Shown here piece by piece: positions 745 through 10,190 of a stretch of 64,000 bases of DNA. The stretch's first letter is position 1; every line of letters starts with the position of its first letter. Source of the stretch: Leptotrichia shahii (GTDB lineage Bacteria; Fusobacteriota; Fusobacteriia; Fusobacteriales; Leptotrichiaceae); NCBI RefSeq assembly GCF_008327825.1, contig NZ_AP019827.1, positions 806,001 to 870,000 on the forward strand, written 5' to 3'. The position numbers were made by a program, and so were the translations under genes. The notes below the pieces were generated by a model. The model searched no databases. It was not told the origin of the DNA and worked only from the letters and a program-made list of their open reading frames with translations.

Positions 745-789
745 AGTTTTGTAGGACAATGACATCTGAATAGTAACTGTGATAATATG

Positions 790-818
790 TTGACAAATTT
801 CAAGAGGTGCAATATAAT
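790..818 (+). promoter_or_regulatory. Strong sigma70-type promoter of the small toxin-like gene
   Basis: The -35 is TTGACA (790-795), the spacer is exactly 17 bases, and the -10 is TATAAT (813-818). Both hexamers are consensus. The predicted start is near 825. It faces the 35-codon membrane peptide at 854. Confidence 0.85.
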
Positions 819-820
819 AG

Positions 821-837
821 TTCCGTAGAGAACGGAA
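821..837. promoter_or_regulatory. Palindrome at the start of the toxin-like transcript (possible operator or leader hairpin)
   Basis: TTCCGT-AGAGA-ACGGAA is a perfect 6-bp inverted repeat just after the -10 and directly before the AGGAGG ribosome site (838-843). It could bind a repressor at the DNA level or form a hairpin near the ribosome site. The half-site TTCCGTA recurs in the operator of the AbrB-like gene at 2208-2245, which favours a shared regulator. That link is inferred. Confidence 0.5.
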
Positions 838-853
838 AGGAGGATATAAGGTA

Positions 854-961
854 ATGAACATAATCGAAAAAATTCATCTACTTGCCAGTATCTGTACAAT
901 TTTACAATTTGTATATATGATATACAAAGAGTATAAAGACAGAAACGACAAGAAGAAATAA
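854..961 (+). CDS. 35-residue membrane peptide, candidate type I toxin (Fst/holin-like-toxin style)
   Basis: ATG at 854 follows AGGAGG at 838-843, and the stop is at 959-961. The peptide has one hydrophobic segment (residues about 8-24, HLLASICTILQFVYMIY) followed by a charged tail (KEYKDRNDKKK). That is the usual architecture of Fst and other small membrane toxins of type I toxin-antitoxin systems. It has a consensus promoter, a downstream terminator, and a 14-base repeat over its start codon that is also transcribed in antisense from a convergent promoter at 1190-1217. The family is assigned from architecture and context, not sequence identity. A small phage holin-like peptide is the alternative. 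Confidence 0.6.
   Translation: MNIIEKIHLLASICTILQFVYMIYKEYKDRNDKKK
855..868 (+). repeat. 14-base direct repeat over the toxin start codon (copy 1; copy 2 at 1162-1175)
   Basis: TGAACATAATCGAA occurs exactly at 855-868, overlapping the first toxin ATG, and at 1162-1175 in the region transcribed by the minus-strand promoter. The antisense RNA therefore carries the exact complement of the toxin initiation region. This resembles the direct repeats of the pAD1 par locus. Confidence 0.75.
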
Positions 962-970
962 CCAACAACG

Positions 971-1001
971 AGGCTATGGTTGCCAAACCCTCTAGCCTTT
1001 T
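971..1001 (+). terminator. Intrinsic terminator after the first small peptide
   Basis: AGGCTA (971-976) pairs with TAGCCT (993-998). An inner GGTT/AACC pairing lies between, and a short T run follows. It sits 10 bases after the stop of the 35-codon gene. Read-through would reach the second peptide at 1040. Confidence 0.6.
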
Positions 1002-1039
1002 CTCTACACTTTAATAAAAAAAAGAAAGAGGTAGCTATT

Positions 1040-1144
1040 ATGTATGAAAAAATACAACTGGTATTATCAATAACGATAATAATTTTATTCTGCACTTTCT
1101 GGACTATAAAATTTATAAAATGGAAAAAAAGCAAAAAAAAATAA
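1040..1144 (+). CDS. 34-residue membrane peptide, second toxin-like gene
   Basis: ATG is at 1040 and the stop at 1142-1144. The ribosome site is AAAGAAAGAGG at 1021-1031. The peptide has a hydrophobic segment (residues 7-23, LVLSITIIILFCTFWTI) and a strongly basic tail (KFIKWKKSKKK). Its stop overlaps a bidirectional hairpin. The bases after the stop share CCAACAACGAGG with the 3' end of the first peptide gene (962-973 and 1147-1158), so the two units look like diverged duplicates. Function is inferred from the shared architecture. Confidence 0.55.
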   Translation: MYEKIQLVLSITIIILFCTFWTIKFIKWKKSKKK

Positions 1145-1183
1145 GCCCAACAACGAGGGCTTGAACATAATCGAATTTTATTT
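1133..1183 (-). ncRNA. Candidate antisense antitoxin RNA, about 50 nt
   Basis: A minus-strand promoter at 1190-1217 would start RNA near 1183. The transcript reads through the complement of the 14-base repeat (1175-1162). It then forms a hairpin AAGCCC-TCGTTGTT-GGGCTT (1162-1143), followed one base later by nine T (1141-1133), a textbook intrinsic terminator. Promoter, body and terminator are all visible. The RNA is complementary both to the 3' end of the toxin transcript and, through the repeat, to the first toxin's start codon. This is the convergent layout of par/fst type I systems. Confidence 0.65.
1143..1162. terminator. Bidirectional hairpin at the end of the toxin and antisense RNAs
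   Basis: AAGCCC (1143-1148) and GGGCTT (1157-1162) pair perfectly around an 8-base loop. On the minus strand nine T follow after one base. On the plus strand there is no clean T run, so it is a strong terminator only for the antisense RNA. Confidence 0.7.
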
Positions 1184-1189
1184 GATTAT

Positions 1190-1217
1190 ATTATAGCATA
1201 TTTTGAAAAAAAGTCAA
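1190..1217 (-). promoter_or_regulatory. Promoter of the candidate antisense RNA
   Basis: On the minus strand the -35 is TTGACT (1217-1212), the spacer 16 bases, and the -10 TATAAT (1195-1190). No open frame of any size follows, only the repeat and the terminator, as expected for a short regulatory RNA. Confidence 0.75.
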
Positions 1218-1230
1218 TATAAAAACTATT

Positions 1231-1262
1231 ATCACAGTTATTAATTTAGCTGTGATTTTTTT
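1231..1262 (+). terminator. Intrinsic terminator closing the toxin-like module
   Basis: ATCACAG (1231-1237) pairs with CTGTGAT (1250-1256) around a 12-base loop, followed by seven T. A very similar hairpin lies at 3579-3610, at the far end of the accessory island. Confidence 0.75.
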
Positions 1263-1398
1263 ATGTAAAAAACAGGACAATGGCAATTGAATATATGACT
1301 GTGAAACTAAAATATTTGTTTTTGAGAGAGTATAGAAAATTTTAATTTTTCTTAAAAATAAGGTATAATATAATAAAATTATTTTTAGGAGGAATTTT

Positions 1399-2172
1399 AT
1401 GACAATATTTATAATTTTGTTTTTAGTATTATTTTTAATTCTGATATTCCAAATAATCAGATTGATTTATTTTGCAATCAAGAAAAAGGAACTGTCTAAA
1501 GAAGTGAAAAAAACTTGTATTGTATTTTTGTGTAATGTATTTGCATTTATCTTAGTTGGAATGACAGCACCTGAGAATATAAAAAATAAAGCAAAAGAAT
1601 CAGGAATAAAAAATAAAGCCGAAAAGGTTAAAGAAGTTAAAAAGAAAGTTGACAAAGAGAAGAAACAAGTTAAATTGGCTAGTCAAGACGACTTAAAATA
1701 TGAAGTATTAAAAAATTCAAGAGATACAAGTAACTTAACTAAAAAAGAAAATACAATAGATATATTAGTTAAAGATAATATTTCTGAAGAAAATCTAAAG
1801 AAAGTAATGAGAAAAGCAGGGAAAGAGCAAATAAAAGATGCGGATATTCTGTTTATTCGTGCTTATGGAGATAAAAAGTTCTTTAATCTTGGTGGTGAAA
1901 CACATGGAATGATAACTTATTATCCTGATGGAACTGTGAAAGATGAAACTTATACAGCTAAAAAAGAAATTCCAAGTGATAAAGAAAAAGATATTTATAT
2001 TGATTATTCAAAAACACTTCATGAAACTTTAAAATCAAAAGGAAACTATACTAAACAAGAAGAAGAAAATATTGAAGAAAAAATCAATAAAAAAATAGCT
2101 AAGAAGTATGGAATTTCACCAGAAGAAGTAGAAAAAATCTTTGATAAAGTTGTTATTTATCAGGGTATGTAG
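1399..2172 (+). CDS. Two-helix membrane protein of unknown function (prophage accessory gene)
   Basis: AGGAGG lies just before the ATG. Residues 2-25 and about 40-55 are hydrophobic and probably span the membrane. A lysine/glutamate-rich coil follows (residues 60-95) and then a soluble domain (about 110-257) with ILVKDNISEENLKKVMRKAG and DADILFIRAYGDKKFFNLGG. I do not recognise the family. Its place in an island inside the late operon, next to toxin-like and regulator genes, suggests a lysogeny-expressed cargo gene. Superinfection exclusion is a possible but untested idea. Confidence 0.7.
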   Translation: MTIFIILFLVLFLILIFQIIRLIYFAIKKKELSKEVKKTCIVFLCNVFAFILVGMTAPENIKNKAKESGIKNKAEKVKEVKKKVDKEKKQVKLASQDDLKYEVLKNSRDTSNLTKKENTIDILVKDNISEENLKKVMRKAGKEQIKDADILFIRAYGDKKFFNLGGETHGMITYYPDGTVKDETYTAKKEIPSDKEKDIYIDYSKTLHETLKSKGNYTKQEEENIEEKINKKIAKKYGISPEEVEKIFDKVVIYQGM

Positions 2173-2200
2173 TTTATTTAAAAAGTTTTCAAAAAAGTTC

Positions 2201-2245
2201 TTGACTTTTCCGTACGAAAATGTTATTATTAATTATCGTACGGAA
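2201..2245 (+). promoter_or_regulatory. Promoter with overlapping palindromic operator of the AbrB-like gene
   Basis: TTGACT (2201-2206), a 17-base spacer and TATTAT (2224-2229) form a promoter. A perfect 10-bp inverted repeat, TTCCGTACGA (2208-2217) and TCGTACGGAA (2236-2245), flanks the -10, and each arm contains the palindrome CGTACG. The pair of sites around the -10 is typical of an autoregulated small repressor. Confidence 0.8.
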
Positions 2246-2256
2246 GAGGTGAGAAT

Positions 2257-2436
2257 ATGAAAGACAAAATTATGAAAAAAGTAAATTTTAATAAAGGAGG
2301 TGCGGGAGGATATACCCCAAGAATAACATTAAATAGTAAATGGGTTGAAGATATGAATATAACTAGAGAAGATAACGAAATAGAAGTAAGTTACAATAAA
2401 GAAACAAAAGAAATAGTTATAAAAAAAGTAAAATAA
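2257..2436 (+). CDS. 59-residue AbrB/MazE-like DNA-binding protein
   Basis: ATG at 2257 follows GAAGAGGTG. A second in-frame ATG (2272) is less well placed. The sequence contains KGGAGGYTPRITLNSKWVED followed by MNITREDNEIEVSY and a short beta-rich end, resembling the swapped-hairpin AbrB/SpoVT fold of small antitoxins and regulators. Promoter and palindromes immediately upstream support autoregulation. No RNase-type toxin partner follows directly, since the next gene is a helical protein of 78 residues. It may also act on the related palindrome at 821-837. The fold is inferred from pattern. Confidence 0.6.
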   Translation: MKDKIMKKVNFNKGGAGGYTPRITLNSKWVEDMNITREDNEIEVSYNKETKEIVIKKVK

Positions 2437-2551
2437 AAAATCCCCTCTCTCGTAACGAAACGAAAAAGAGGATATATACATATAATGTACTTAGCACTAC
2501 TATTATACTATATATTCTCTTAAAAAACAAATATTTTAGGAGGAAAATTTT

Positions 2552-2788
2552 ATGAACAAAATAACATTTTTAGATGTTGAGGAAGTAAGAATTAAATTAG
2601 AAGGTGTAAGAAGCTTAATGGTCGCTCTGGAATATGGAATATTTGATAGCTTTGAATCAAAAGAAATATTTAGAGTTGGGTATGCTAATTTGGTTGAACA
2701 GGTTTATGGTATACAAAATGAACTGGATATATTAATTGAAAAAGCAAAAAATAGAGTTCAAAAAGATTCGGAAGAAGAAATTGCATAA
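2552..2788 (+). CDS. 78-residue helical protein of unknown function (prophage)
   Basis: AGGAGG precedes the ATG by about seven bases. The product is acidic and mostly helical, with no transmembrane segment. I do not recognise it. It lies between the AbrB-like gene and the antirepressor and is probably transcribed with the latter. Confidence 0.6.
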   Translation: MNKITFLDVEEVRIKLEGVRSLMVALEYGIFDSFESKEIFRVGYANLVEQVYGIQNELDILIEKAKNRVQKDSEEEIA

Positions 2789-2813
2789 AAATAGTATAAT
2801 GGAGGATAAAAGA

Positions 2814-3530
2814 ATGAATGAATTACAAGTTATAAATGATGAAAGATTTCAAATATTCAGTAAAGAAAATTTAGGAAGTGTAAGAACAATATTGGTGGAT
2901 AACGAAGTATGGTTTTGCATAAAAGATGTTTGCGATATATTAGAATTAACAAATCCTACTGTTGTAGCCAAGAGATTAGATGAAGATGAAGTGACTAAGT
3001 TTAACTTAGGGAGTAAATTTGGTATTACCAACTTCACAAACGAAAGTGGATTATATACTCTGATATTACGAAGTGATAAAAAAGAAGCTAAACCATTTAG
3101 AAAATGGATAACATCAGAAGTTATTCCAGCAATCAGAAAAACAGGAAAATATGAAGAGAAGAAAAAACCTCTTACACAGGCTGAATTAATTTTACAGCAG
3201 GCTCAATGGATGGTTGAAGCTGAAAGCAGAATCAATAATATTGAGAACAATGTAATTGGACTTGCAAACACTATTGAGGATAATGACAAGAGCATAAAAA
3301 GATTGGAAAACAATCAAAGAAGAACAGTAACAAGCAACCATCTGACAGTAATAGCCTATGCCAACATAAAAGGAATAAAGCCAAAATCATACCACGCACC
3401 TTCTATAGGAAAGAAAGCTACTAAGATATGCAGGGAAAAGGATTTATTAATAGGAACAACGGTTGACAGCCGATACGGACTAATAAATACTTATCCTGTT
3501 GAAGTTCTGGATGAAATATTTTTTGAATAG
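2814..3530 (+). CDS. BRO-N domain phage antirepressor
   Basis: I chose the ATG at 2814 because GGAGG lies at 2801-2805; the frame is open upstream to 2736 but without a ribosome site. Residues about 10-110 form a BRO-N domain, with VWFCIKDVCDILELTNPTVV, ESGLYTLILRSDKKEAKPFR and WITSEVIPAIRKTGKY. The middle is a coiled coil. The last 60 residues (TSNHLTVIAYANIKGIKPKS) form a second small domain like those at the end of phage antirepressors. Such proteins usually act in lysis-lysogeny control. Finding one inside the tail operon, with a terminator after it, marks it as part of an inserted island. Confidence 0.85.
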   Translation: MNELQVINDERFQIFSKENLGSVRTILVDNEVWFCIKDVCDILELTNPTVVAKRLDEDEVTKFNLGSKFGITNFTNESGLYTLILRSDKKEAKPFRKWITSEVIPAIRKTGKYEEKKKPLTQAELILQQAQWMVEAESRINNIENNVIGLANTIEDNDKSIKRLENNQRRTVTSNHLTVIAYANIKGIKPKSYHAPSIGKKATKICREKDLLIGTTVDSRYGLINTYPVEVLDEIFFE

Positions 3531-3578
3531 TAGTAGAAAATTTACTAGACCAAATTGAAAATTAAATAGAAACATTAA

Positions 3579-3610
3579 ATCACAGTCATTAATTTGATTG
3601 TGATTTTTTT
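3579..3610 (+). terminator. Intrinsic terminator at the end of the accessory island
   Basis: ATCACA (3579-3584) pairs with TGTGAT (3599-3604), extended by inner GTC/GAT pairing, with seven T after it. The spike gene starts 34 bases later. Late transcription from upstream would have to pass this hairpin, or restart after it. Confidence 0.75.
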
Positions 3611-3643
3611 GTTACAAAAAAAGTGATAAGGCAGGTGGTTAAA

Positions 3644-4093
3644 TTGATTGAAACATTAAAAGCAGGAGAAGTAAGTGCGATAGATTCAAAAACTGGAAAA
3701 GTAAGAGTTTTGTTAAAAGGCGATGATGACAAGACAACGGACTGGCTTAATGTATTAGTTCCTTACTCTGAAAGTCATAGCGATAATTATACACTCAGTT
3801 TAAAGCAAACTGTTTATTGCTTATTCTTTTCAGAAATGCCTGAACAAGGAGTTGTGCTTGGTTGTCCTATGCGAGGTGCTTCTAGCAGCGAAAGCGAAGT
3901 TAAAAGAACTTTTTCCGATGGGGGTAGTTGGACTTATGATGGCAATACATTGACTTTAAATATTGGTAAAATCGTGATTAATGGAGATTTAGAAGTGAGC
4001 GGAACGACTACAACTGGTGGAAGTATTAATCTTAATACACATAAACACGATGGTATTACTGCTGGTGGAGATATGAGTGGAGGTCCGCAATGA
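3644..4093 (+). CDS. Phage baseplate assembly protein V (tail spike)
   Basis: I chose the TTG at 3644 because AGGTGG at 3634-3639 has good spacing; a GTG at 3623 would add seven residues. The 149-residue product has the GpV pattern: an OB-like start (GEVSAIDSKTGKVRVLLKGD), then VYCLFFSEMPEQGVVLGCPM, then a beta-helical needle ending in HKHDGITAGGDMSGGPQ. In the family the HxH near the tip holds an iron ion. It forms the trimeric puncturing spike under the tail tube. The next gene overlaps its stop by four bases. Confidence 0.9.
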   Translation: MIETLKAGEVSAIDSKTGKVRVLLKGDDDKTTDWLNVLVPYSESHSDNYTLSLKQTVYCLFFSEMPEQGVVLGCPMRGASSSESEVKRTFSDGGSWTYDGNTLTLNIGKIVINGDLEVSGTTTTGGSINLNTHKHDGITAGGDMSGGPQ

Positions 4094-4620: not shown

Positions 4621-4918
4621 CTCTGAAGAAATAAATTATAATCCAAAAAATGTTTTAGAAGAAGTAGTTACAAATGTAGGAATGATTTTAAGAGTTTGCA
4701 AAGAAGAACAGCCACTCAATCGAGATTTTGCATTTGACAGTGATTTAATTGATAAGAACATTAATGTTGTGCAGAATAGGATTACAAGCCACTTGACTAA
4801 AATTATAAGAGAATATGAGCCAAGAGCTGTTTTAAGACAAACTAGAATCATTATGAAAGATACATATAATAATGATTTTGACATTGAATTAGGAATTGAG
4901 GTGGTAAACATTGAGTGA
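4604..4918 (+). CDS. Baseplate wedge protein, GpW/gp25 family
   Basis: This 104-residue product has AAGGAGG upstream of its ATG. It carries the gp25-like pattern NVGMILRVCKEEQPLNRDFA with later LTKIIREYEPRAVLRQTRI. In the family the EPR motif contacts neighbouring wedge and sheath proteins. Position between U and J is as expected for contractile-tail phages. Confidence 0.88.
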   Translation: MITVNSSEEINYNPKNVLEEVVTNVGMILRVCKEEQPLNRDFAFDSDLIDKNINVVQNRITSHLTKIIREYEPRAVLRQTRIIMKDTYNNDFDIELGIEVVNIE

Positions 4919-6029
4919 AATATCAAATGAAGAATATGAAATTATAGATGCGGATTCGTGGGAACTTAAAAGAGATATGATTGATAAGTTTCAGGAGCTG
5001 AGTGGAAGGCAATTAACTGAATCAAGTCCAGAAACACTTATCTTTGAAACGGTAGCGTATTTATTTGGATTAAGAGAAGAAAAATACAACGATGAAATGA
5101 AACAGAATTATTTAAGATTTGCAAGAAATGAGCGGTTAGATTTGAAAGGAGAGTTTTACGGAAATAGAGGTAAAAGACTCGTAGAACAACCAGCCGTGGC
5201 AACATTTAGATTTTATATTACTGATATTCAAGTGACAGACATAATAATTCCAAAGGGGTCAAGGATTCAATACAATGAGTTATATTTTTCAACTGATGAA
5301 CAATATAAAATAGGAAAAGGCGATTTGTATGTAGATGGAATTGCAACTTGCAACACATCAGGAACTGTTGGAAATGATATTCCAGTCGGACAAATTAACA
5401 CGATGGTCGACATTTTTCCACATTACGATAAAGTCGAGAACATTACAGCATCAAATAATGGAGCTGAAATAGAGCAAGACGACAATTATAGAGCTAGAAT
5501 CAGAGAAATCCCTGAAAGTTTCACAACAGCTGGAAGTAAAGGAGCTTATGAATTTTGGGCTAAGTCAGCAAGTACGAATATTGTTGATGTTGTGGCATAC
5601 AGTCCAAGCGCAACAAATGTAGATATTTATGTTTTAACTGATTCCTTGACACTTACTAATGAACTCAAAAAGAGAATCGAAGAAATGTTGAATACTGACA
5701 ACATAAGACCGTTGACAGACAACGTGACAATAAAACAAGCAATAAAGACATCATACACAATTGATTTTGACTACTACATTGATAAGTCTAATGAAACGCT
5801 TGTAAATGTTATTAAAAATAATGTTGAAAAAGCTGTAAAAGATTTTAAAAATTGGCAGCAAAACAAAATGGGGAGAGATATTAATCCAGATGAGCTTATA
5901 AAATTACTAAAATTAGCTGGAGTAAAAAGAGTTGTGTTAAGAAATCCCGCTTTTAAAGTTTTAGATTTTAATGAAATAGCAGAAAACACAAGCGTTACAA
6001 GCAATTATTTAGGAGTTGAAAATATATGA
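4911..6029 (+). CDS. Baseplate protein J
   Basis: TTG start at 4911 with GAGGTGG upstream, overlapping the gp25 gene by eight bases. The 372-residue product has the Baseplate_J pattern: SSPETLIFETVAYLFGLREE, RLDLKGEFYGNRGKRL, IIPKGSRIQYNELYFSTDEQ and DDNYRARIREIPESFTTAGS. It forms the outer wedge of the baseplate. The next gene begins within its stop (ATGA). Confidence 0.92.
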   Translation: MSEISNEEYEIIDADSWELKRDMIDKFQELSGRQLTESSPETLIFETVAYLFGLREEKYNDEMKQNYLRFARNERLDLKGEFYGNRGKRLVEQPAVATFRFYITDIQVTDIIIPKGSRIQYNELYFSTDEQYKIGKGDLYVDGIATCNTSGTVGNDIPVGQINTMVDIFPHYDKVENITASNNGAEIEQDDNYRARIREIPESFTTAGSKGAYEFWAKSASTNIVDVVAYSPSATNVDIYVLTDSLTLTNELKKRIEEMLNTDNIRPLTDNVTIKQAIKTSYTIDFDYYIDKSNETLVNVIKNNVEKAVKDFKNWQQNKMGRDINPDELIKLLKLAGVKRVVLRNPAFKVLDFNEIAENTSVTSNYLGVENI

Positions 6030-9200: not shown

Positions 9201-10190
9201 ATGGACAGATTTGAGAAAATATTTGACTATCTGCTGAAAGTTGAGGGCGGATATTCTAATGACAAGCACGACAAGGGTGGAAAAACAAAATACGGAATAA
9301 CCGAAGAAGAAGCAAGAGAATTTGGATATAAGGGAGATATGCAGGACTTGACAAAAGATTTTGCAAAGAGTATCTATCTTAAGAAATATTATCTTGGAAA
9401 CAAGCTGGATAAAGTTGTAAATGATAAAGTAGCATTATCTATATGCGATTGGGCAGTTAATTCAGGAAGAAACGGAACAAAAAATGCACAGATTGCCACA
9501 AATCAATTGACAAATGCAAATCTTGATGTAGACGGAATAATTGGAAACAAAACATTGGAAGCATTGAATGCAACGGATCCTGAAAAATTTTTAGAAGTTT
9601 ATCATAACTTGCAGAGAATTTATTACAGAAGCAAGGTTGAAAGTGACAAGATTCAAAAAGGATTTTTGGCAGGTTGGCTAAATAGAGTTCAAAGAAAGGA
9701 GGAATATTTCAAAGATTGGGACAAGGAAAATACAGCAACAGAGAATAAAACGTATTCTTTCAGCCAAGAAAGTTTGGATAAAATGAAAAAAGTACATCCA
9801 AAGTTAGTTGAAGTTATGAAAGCTGCGATTACAAATAGTCCTTTTGATTTTAGAATAACAGCAGGAGCAAGAACGGCTGAAGAACAGTTTGCTTTGTATC
9901 AAAAAGGTAGAACTTTACCTGGACCGAAAGTTACAAATTGTGATGGCAAGAATTTTAAATCAAACCATCAAATAAAATCTGATGGATACGGACATGCAGT
10001 TGACATATTCCCTTGCGGAGTTATCGAAAATGGCGTGTATAGAAAATTTACATCAGATGAAGGATATGACGATAAGAAATTAAGATTAATAGCAAATCAT
10101 ATCTTGGCTGTTGCAAAAAGTAAAAACGTAAATGTTGAATGGGGTGGAAATTGGAAAATGCATGATACACCACATTTTGAACTGAAGTAA
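9201..10190 (+). CDS. Two-domain endolysin: GH108-type muramidase plus M15 peptidase
   Basis: Residues 1-170 follow the GH108 pattern: EGGYSNDKHDKGGKTKYGIT with probable catalytic Glu15, then ICDWAVNSGRNGTKNAQIA and DVDGIIGNKTLEALN as in the associated PG-binding part. From about 185 to 329 it is an M15-type metallopeptidase (RITAGARTAEEQFALYQKGR, GYGHAVDIFP, WGGNWKMHDTPHFEL), with His and Asp ligands for zinc in GHAVD and a His near the end. It would cut both glycan and stem peptide at lysis. It lacks a signal peptide, so it needs a holin. Confidence 0.9.
   Translation: MDRFEKIFDYLLKVEGGYSNDKHDKGGKTKYGITEEEAREFGYKGDMQDLTKDFAKSIYLKKYYLGNKLDKVVNDKVALSICDWAVNSGRNGTKNAQIATNQLTNANLDVDGIIGNKTLEALNATDPEKFLEVYHNLQRIYYRSKVESDKIQKGFLAGWLNRVQRKEEYFKDWDKENTATENKTYSFSQESLDKMKKVHPKLVEVMKAAITNSPFDFRITAGARTAEEQFALYQKGRTLPGPKVTNCDGKNFKSNHQIKSDGYGHAVDIFPCGVIENGVYRKFTSDEGYDDKKLRLIANHILAVAKSKNVNVEWGGNWKMHDTPHFELK

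What the first reader, a model, noticed from the sequence alone, without database searches (positions are those of the whole stretch)
753..1262. Type I toxin-antitoxin-like locus with par/fst architecture in a prophage tail operon
Seen: a consensus promoter, two genes for 34-35-residue single-helix peptides with basic tails, a convergent consensus promoter with no ORF behind it, and a perfect terminator ending the minus-strand RNA after about 50 nt. An exact 14-base repeat (855-868, 1162-1175) makes that RNA complementary to the first toxin's start codon. Known: the pAD1 par locus uses convergent RNAs, a shared terminator and direct repeats in the same way. Inference: these peptides are toxins and the antisense RNA is the antitoxin. 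Two toxin genes for one antisense RNA would be unusual.
Basis: partly seen in the sequence, partly recalled or inferred. Interest (0 to 1): 0.85.

Follow-up and report, generated by a model that had tools for sequence, protein, structure and literature searches.

The report
Two-toxin, one-antisense-RNA module in Leptotrichia
A Leptotrichia prophage carries two tiny membrane-peptide genes with a short antisense RNA that matches the start of the first and lies across the end of the second; the matching is preserved across species, so this is very probably a toxin-antitoxin module controlled by RNA, of a kind we did not find described for this bacterial phylum.

Summary
In detail: consensus promoter (790-818), two 34-35-residue ORFs (854-961, 1040-1144), a convergent promoter (1217-1190, -) for a ~50-nt RNA with a perfect terminator, and an exact 14-nt repeat (855-868/1162-1175). 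Six further loci (five Leptotrichia genomes, one IMG/VR contig; three haplotypes with the window) make the inference strong. Four of 14 repeat positions vary between haplotypes, and both copies change together. Also missed: the predicted T1 mRNA (825-1007) closes on itself, its first 8 nt pairing with its last 8 (one compensatory change), with the Shine-Dalgarno paired near the terminator in 6 of 7 folds, as described for aapA3. Thirteen antisense remnants lack both toxin starts. Best reading: a type I toxin-antitoxin module; the antisense RNA blocks T1 through two distant repeats and covers T2's 3' end in cis. It works like par/fst plus aapA/hok, but is not an Fst member: no Pfam match, no PXXXG, no shared terminator. 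One RNA for two toxins has a precedent, yonT/yoyJ-SR6. It sits in an exchangeable prophage cargo slot, and also beside ribosomal-protein or purD genes. Toxicity and RNAs are unmeasured.

The parts
753..785 (+). left boundary repeat of the cargo cassette
   Evidence: similar copies bound other prophage cassettes
790..818 (+). promoter of the first peptide gene, TTGACA-17-TATAAT
   Evidence: same place upstream of T1 in the relatives
825..1007 (+). predicted T1 mRNA (183 nt), ends paired
   Evidence: folding and shuffles, (MFE z -4.9); the ends are predicted, not mapped
825..832 (+). 5' arm of end helix GTAGAGAA
839..843 (+). Shine-Dalgarno GGAGG of T1, predicted paired with CCTCT 989-993
   Evidence: 6 of 7 loci; not in G007
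854..961 (+). T1: 35-aa peptide with one hydrophobic stretch, putative toxin 1
   Evidence: dN/dS 0.22 vs G006
855..868 (+). repeat DR1a over the T1 start, complementary to the antisense RNA
962..973 (+). repeat DR2a CCAACAACGAGG directly after the T1 stop, complementary to the antisense terminator region
971..1001 (+). T1 terminator-like hairpin AGGCTA..TAGCC + TTTT
   Evidence: sequence and fold of 955-1007, -12.9 kcal/mol; not listed by the pattern scan
1000..1007 (+). 3' arm of end helix TTCTCTAC
1040..1144 (+). T2: 34-aa single-helix peptide with Lys tail, putative toxin 2
   Evidence: dN/dS 0.11 vs G006
1133..1183 (-). predicted antisense RNA, about 51 nt (putative antitoxin)
1143..1162 (-). 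antisense terminator hairpin; its U-run is the complement of T2's lysine codons
1147..1158 (+). repeat DR2b CCAACAACGAGG (antisense terminator hairpin)
1162..1175 (+). repeat DR1b (5' half of antisense RNA)
1190..1217 (-). antisense promoter TTGACT-16-TATAAT
1231..1256 (+). cassette terminator ATCACAGTTATTAATTTAGCTGTGAT + T run; the only plus-strand terminator listed in the scan of 700-1420

Best explanation
A type I toxin-antitoxin module carried as prophage cargo. (1) P790 makes T1 mRNA, which folds with its 5' end on its 3' end so that the Shine-Dalgarno is masked until, as in hok and aapA, 3' trimming opens it. (2) The minus-strand RNA is the antitoxin: its 5' half pairs with the T1 start codon, its terminator loop with the sequence after the T1 stop; this blocks T1 translation. 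(3) Read-through past the T1 terminator yields T2 mRNA, whose 3' end is fully complementary to the antisense RNA for about 50 nt; that duplex would be an RNase III target, as for yonT/SR6. (4) Loss of the locus lets the antitoxin fade before the toxin mRNA, holding the prophage or chromosomal region in place. Shown from sequence: the anatomy, paired evolution of the repeats, the predicted fold with one compensatory change, purifying selection on both ORFs. Inferred: toxicity, existence and lengths of the RNAs, processing, RNase III, addiction.
For: Seven loci have both ORFs. DR1 copies are identical within each of three haplotypes; 4 of 14 columns vary, the same four in both copies, cross matches being 10-12 of 14. 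Antisense 5' half with T1 start: -18.7, -18.7, -17.3 kcal/mol cognate against -2.6 to -11.4 in the six non-cognate pairings. Full antisense with T1 start and with the T1 3' region: 0-1 and 0-5 of 300 shuffles as strong, while T1 middle, T2 start and T2 middle are no better than shuffles. DR2 longest shared words 12, 13, 11 nt cognate, at most 8 otherwise. End helix 8 of 8 pairs in all three haplotypes, 7 of 8 when arms of C are crossed with A or B; pairing probability 0.96-0.99 in 7 of 7, 0 of 200 shuffles as high in each of three haplotypes, MFE z -4.9, -2.8, -3.6. dN/dS 0.22 (T1) and 0.11 (T2), G000 vs G006. Antisense-like sequence in 19 places (10 of them in the model): 6 intact loci and 13 remnants; N-terminal parts of T1 and T2 find no match better than E 0.036 in the 13 remnants and E 1.4e-5 or better in all 7 intact loci. 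Intact copies at three kinds of place: tail operon, beside ribosomal protein genes (G006), beside purD (G002).
Against: No expression or toxicity data. Three haplotypes only; four of seven loci are nearly identical, and the end helix has a single compensatory change; in the other loci I set the mRNA ends by a pattern of the two arms, so the shuffles do not allow for that choice. In G007 the lowest-energy fold leaves the Shine-Dalgarno free. DR2 energies discriminate weakly: cognate -22.1 to -25.3, A with B crossed -21.1 and -21.4. dN/dS rests on few changes, and dS is saturated in three of four comparisons with haplotype C and 1.4-1.5 where counted for T2. The T2 start has no complementarity above shuffles, and no site better than 9 of 12 (893-921) could serve as a T2 promoter, so T2 control is the weakest link. 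11 of 13 remnants probably stem from one deletion, so toxin loss with antisense kept is about three events; one further remnant (G010:C23) keeps the T1 3' region and part of T2 instead. In the read-through transcript the end helix falls to 0.40 in the window, though 0.97 and 1.00 in G006 and G002. Trimming raises Shine-Dalgarno accessibility unevenly: 0.39-0.55 at 6 nt, 0.10-0.41 at 10 nt, 0.56-0.73 at 28 nt, from 0.06-0.25.
Confidence: 0.82

Rival explanations
1. Only T1 plus the antisense RNA is the toxin-antitoxin pair; T2 is a co-transcribed small membrane peptide with another role (or a weak toxin), its 3' end overlapping the antisense gene because the T2 lysine codons supply the antisense U-run.
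For: Antisense pairs with T1 start and not T2 start; no good T2 promoter; in yonT/yoyJ-SR6 the second toxin is weak and not conserved (PMC5848175).
Against: T2 is as constrained as T1 (dN/dS 0.11, few changes), resembles T1 over 18 columns (hhalign probability 69, P 4.4e-5), is followed by the same DR2 word, and has no N-terminal match in the 13 antisense-bearing remnants.
Confidence: 0.3
2. T1/T2 are small phage holins or lysis regulators of the tail/lysis region.
For: T1 matches phrog_920 (holin) weakly, E 0.0027, 4 of 6 members; sits in a phage late region.
Against: Intact copies outside tail genes, beside housekeeping genes; own promoter, terminator and antisense gene; the endolysin gene lies elsewhere, 9201-10190.
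Confidence: 0.05
3. The repeat and promoters are chance in A+T-rich DNA, and the ORFs are not genes.
For: A 14-nt repeat arose in 2 of 300 shuffles; promoter-like sites are common here.
Against: Mirrored substitutions, conserved ORFs and cognate-only pairing at the T1 start across species.
Confidence: 0.02

Closest known systems
par/Fst of plasmid pAD1 (Enterococcus faecalis), RNA I/RNA II
   Same: short convergent antisense RNA; repeat pair places antisense complementarity on the toxin start; second contact through the antisense terminator loop; 33-35-aa toxin (PMC7472228, passages seen)
   Different: no Fst family match or PXXXG motif; no shared bidirectional terminator; a second peptide gene lies between; Shine-Dalgarno predicted masked by the mRNA 3' end rather than by a local 5' stem
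yonT/yoyJ-SR6 (Bacillus subtilis SPbeta prophage)
   Same: one antisense RNA placed against two peptide genes on one strand, in a prophage; 3' overlap with one of them (PMC5848175, passages seen)
   Different: SR6 overlaps the yonT 3' end and the yoyJ 5' end in cis; here the T1 start is reached through a distant repeat; both peptides are conserved here, whereas yoyJ is complete only in B. subtilis
aapA3/IsoA3 (Helicobacter pylori) and hok/Sok
   Same: full-length mRNA with both ends paired and the Shine-Dalgarno sequestered, so 3' trimming is the expected switch (PMC6733600, passages seen)
   Different: different peptides (recalled; not compared here); antisense gene placed downstream and joined through repeats
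txpA/RatA, bsrG/SR4 (Bacillus)
   Same: antisense overlaps the toxin mRNA 3' end, as for T2 here (PMC4147584 and PMC5848175, passages seen); prophage-like location (PMC6563280, passages seen)
   Different: no start-codon repeat (recalled); no Pfam family match for T1 or T2 that names such toxins

Membership tests
Type I toxin-antitoxin (general) | small hydrophobic peptide gene with conserved ORF | tested here: met
   (T1 of the window is moderately hydrophobic)
Type I toxin-antitoxin (general) | antisense RNA gene complementary to the toxin mRNA, complementarity maintained in evolution | tested here: met
   (in silico; RNA not observed)
Type I toxin-antitoxin (general) | peptide toxic, relieved by the RNA | not testable with these tools
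   needs an expression test
Fst/Ldr (par pAD1) | toxin matches Fst_toxin PF13955 | tested here: not met
   no match for T1/T2; PF13955 search of 13 Leptotrichia genomes: 0 over cut-off, none at this locus; the control genomes also had none over the cut-off, so that search has no strong positive control
Fst/Ldr (par pAD1) | PXXXG(C) motif in the hydrophobic domain (PMC7472228, figure legend seen) | tested here: not met
   no proline in the hydrophobic stretch of any of the seven T1 or seven T2 sequences
Fst/Ldr (par pAD1) | convergent promoters and direct repeats giving start-codon complementarity | tested here: met
Fst/Ldr (par pAD1) | shared bidirectional terminator | tested here: not met
   1143-1162 has a U-run on the minus strand only; plus-strand hairpins at 971-1001 and 1231-1256
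yonT/yoyJ-SR6 arrangement | one antisense RNA complementary to two peptide genes | tested here: met
   T1 by two repeats, T2 by 3' overlap
hok/aapA-type mRNA control | 5'-3' end pairing masking the Shine-Dalgarno, conserved | tested here: met
   end helix in 7 of 7, one compensatory change; Shine-Dalgarno paired to the 3' part in 6 of 7 lowest-energy folds
hok/aapA-type mRNA control | 3' trimming activates translation | not testable with these tools
   folding of trimmed forms is mixed
TxpA / Hol_Tox holin-like toxins | matches a Pfam family of small holin-like toxins | tested here: not met
   none listed at E <= 10 for 6 T1 and 6 T2 members, though the filters drop most weak matches; that such families are in Pfam is recalled

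The most novel reading that the evidence does not exclude
A new type I family of Fusobacteriota in which one ~50-nt RNA controls two paralogous toxins by different means at once: T1 through two distant short repeats, on an mRNA locked end to end, and T2 in cis through 3' overlap. Antisense binding at DR2 would also compete with the T1 terminator stem, so the antitoxin itself could decide whether transcription reaches T2.
Probability: 0.4. Interest if true: 0.75.

Novelty: new variant of a known kind. Interest (0 to 1): 0.62.

Why it matters
A 2025 paper (PMC12390103, passages seen) states that type I systems were known only in Proteobacteria, Firmicutes and Tenericutes, and adds Cyanobacteria. 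Our paper searches showed none for Fusobacteriota; of their hits only PMC4147584 (type III in Fusobacteria; passages) and PMC10326533 (passages) were opened. The latter calls a F. nucleatum RelB protein part of a 'type I' complex; RelB is a protein antitoxin, so I take that as a slip. This module would extend the range, joins two control logics known separately (par-like repeats; hok/aapA-like mRNA locking), and offers a natural test of antisense-target co-evolution: three mutually mismatched haplotypes of one locus, one genome (G006) holding an orphan antisense gene closer to the window's type beside an intact locus of another type.

Tried and rejected
IS200/IS605-type element: boundary repeats at 753-785 and 1231-1272 recur in pairs, so I first suspected transposon ends; the 2-kb version tested carries an OLD-like nuclease, not TnpA/TnpB, so I treat them as boundaries of exchangeable cargo. 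Rfam: no match at gathering score in the window. Wider spread: in 98 Fusobacteriota genomes the T1 profile hits 6 intact loci at E < 1e-22, and 8 more hits (E 0.005-0.05) were set aside as chance; the T2 profile hits the same 6 at E < 1e-19, 10 remnants at E 3e-8 to 1e-4, and 11 more (E 0.007-0.05) set aside. The antisense model R1 has only 3 base pairs, so it is nearly a sequence model; its 20th hit (G083, E 0.096) was set aside. phrog_920 holin and Vpu matches are weak and look compositional. PDB sequences: nothing convincing (one hit at E 9 for T1, none for T2). Phage records: no match. MAFFT misaligned the 5' end of G002/G003 mRNA, so end-helix pairs were counted on the arms directly and no covariation program was run on it. 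No protein structure was predicted.

Full report
What is there. The window lies in a Leptotrichia genome: a genome classed as the same genus, G007, agrees in contig length and coordinates with L. hongkongensis JMUB5056. Around the finding are tail and baseplate genes: a tail-like gene at 217-744, a baseplate V-like gene at 3623, GpU-like at 4090, baseplate J at 4911, Tail_P2_I at 6026, and an endolysin at 9201-10190. The chance of a 14-nt exact repeat in such DNA is small but not negligible (2 of 300 shuffles).

Relatives. DNA and protein searches of 60 genomes, profile searches of 98 Fusobacteriota genomes, one IMG/VR scan and one GTDB contig scan (which returned only the G007 locus) gave seven loci with both ORFs: the window, G009, G007, G006, G003, G002 and the IMG/VR contig (L113). 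They fall into three haplotypes: A (window, G009, G007, IMG/VR), B (G006), C (G003, G002). A sits in the tail operon. B follows genes for ribosomal proteins L13 and S9; C lies beside purD (GARS domains) and sfsA (Pfam for G006 and G002; the same neighbours by translation in G003).

Antisense pairing. Within each haplotype the 14-nt copy over the T1 start and the copy in the antisense gene are identical. Four columns vary between haplotypes, the same four in both copies; across haplotypes only 10-12 of 14 match. Some of these changes are synonymous in T1, which suggests selection on the RNA pairing itself. Duplex energies at the T1 start are strong only for cognate pairs (-17.3 to -18.7 against -2.6 to -11.4 kcal/mol). 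A second word after the T1 stop (CCAACAACGAGG in A, AACAACAAGGGCT in B, CCAATAACAAA in C) recurs in the antisense terminator and also changes in step, but its energies separate cognate from non-cognate pairs less well. The T2 start shows no complementarity above shuffles; the T2 3' end is covered completely.

mRNA fold. The predicted start of the T1 mRNA, base 825, seven bases after the -10 box, is also the first base of a helix joining GTAGAGAA to TTCTCTAC at 1000-1007; in haplotype C the two arms read GTAGTGAA and TTCACTAC. The Shine-Dalgarno pairs with bases near the terminator (989-993 in the window) in 6 of 7 lowest-energy folds, not in G007. Folding energy is 2.8-4.9 standard deviations below shuffles in the three haplotypes. 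The mRNA ends in the relatives were set by a pattern of the two arms. In aapA3 and hok such pairing keeps the full-length mRNA inert until its 3' end is trimmed (PMC6733600, passages seen). In silico trimming raises Shine-Dalgarno accessibility from 0.06-0.25 to 0.39-0.55 (6 nt) and 0.56-0.73 (28 nt), but 10 nt gives only 0.10-0.41.

Remnants. Antisense-like sequence occurs in 19 places in 13 genomes: 12 of the 13 Leptotrichia genomes and one of another genus, G022 (10 of the 19 were in the model). Six are the intact loci. In the other thirteen no N-terminal part of T1 or T2 is found (best E 0.036, against 1.4e-5 or better in all seven intact loci). Ten lie upstream of one DUF896 gene (MEDIIKK...; Pfam run on the G009 copy); an eleventh, G012, has a similar remnant and shares the upstream flanking gene of the G000 one but not the DUF896 gene: probably one old deletion. 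One is in G022, and one in G006, cut off upstream by what looks like the end of an insertion element. G010:C23 keeps instead the T1 3' region and an interrupted T2. Loss of the toxin with retention of the antisense is what toxicity predicts, but the independent events are about three.

Comparison. Against par pAD1 (PMC7472228, passages seen) the repeats and the convergent RNA agree; family membership, the PXXXG motif and the shared terminator do not. One RNA for two toxins is in print for yonT/yoyJ-SR6 (PMC5848175, passages seen). C. difficile prophage systems also encode 34-35-aa toxins (PMC6563280, passages seen). PMC7699646 and PMC8309996 were seen in passages, all other papers in the listings as listings only.

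Setting. The module is one of several cargoes bounded by GGACAATGNCA..ACTGTGA on the left and TCACAGTTATTAAT..CTGTGATTTTTT on the right. The left pattern has 14 matches in 7 of 13 Leptotrichia genomes with up to 2 mismatches, reversed-pattern control 0; it misses longer variants such as those of G007 and G009. Of the 20 left boundaries that I looked at, 12 are followed by the right terminator in the stretch held, a 13th by eye, and 7 are not. Other cargoes: OLD-like nuclease, SocA-like antitoxin plus a PemK-like protein (below cut-off), Fic, DUF6290. This setting supports a defence or maintenance role but does not prove it.

Verdict. A convincing type I toxin-antitoxin candidate by comparative evidence, with peptides matching no named family, and an uncommon two-peptide layout. 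Not shown: that either peptide is toxic, that the RNAs exist, or what T2 does.

Noticed in passing
window 753-785 and 1231-1256; L094, L095, L096, L097, L098, L113, L184, L186, L189, L005, L006: Conserved boundary pair of cargo cassettes (12 of 20 left boundaries have the right terminator downstream). The left boundary is complementary to the 5' arm of the right terminator (771-787 with 1227-1243), so in a phage late transcript reading through it might disarm the cassette's terminator; untested idea.
   Followed up: partly
window 1274-3620: A second cassette starts with a variant left boundary (1274-1293) and holds a 257-aa protein with a hydrophobic N-terminus, a 59-aa protein and a BRO-N antirepressor-like gene; relatives of the 257-aa protein (by eye) occupy the same slot in G005 and G004 (L153, L157).
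   Followed up: partly
L006:1330-1510: In G006 an orphan antisense gene closer to haplotype A lies directly upstream of an intact haplotype B locus, preceded by what looks like an insertion-element end.
   Followed up: partly
window 1133-1142: The lysine codons ending T2 are, on the other strand, the U-run of the antisense terminator, so one sequence serves the peptide tail and the RNA end.
   Followed up: no
L099, L100, L102-L108, L187: The same decayed remnant lies upstream of a DUF896 gene in 10 Leptotrichia genomes, most with a T1-type promoter fused to the T2 tail; the old toxin promoter may now drive that gene.
   Followed up: partly
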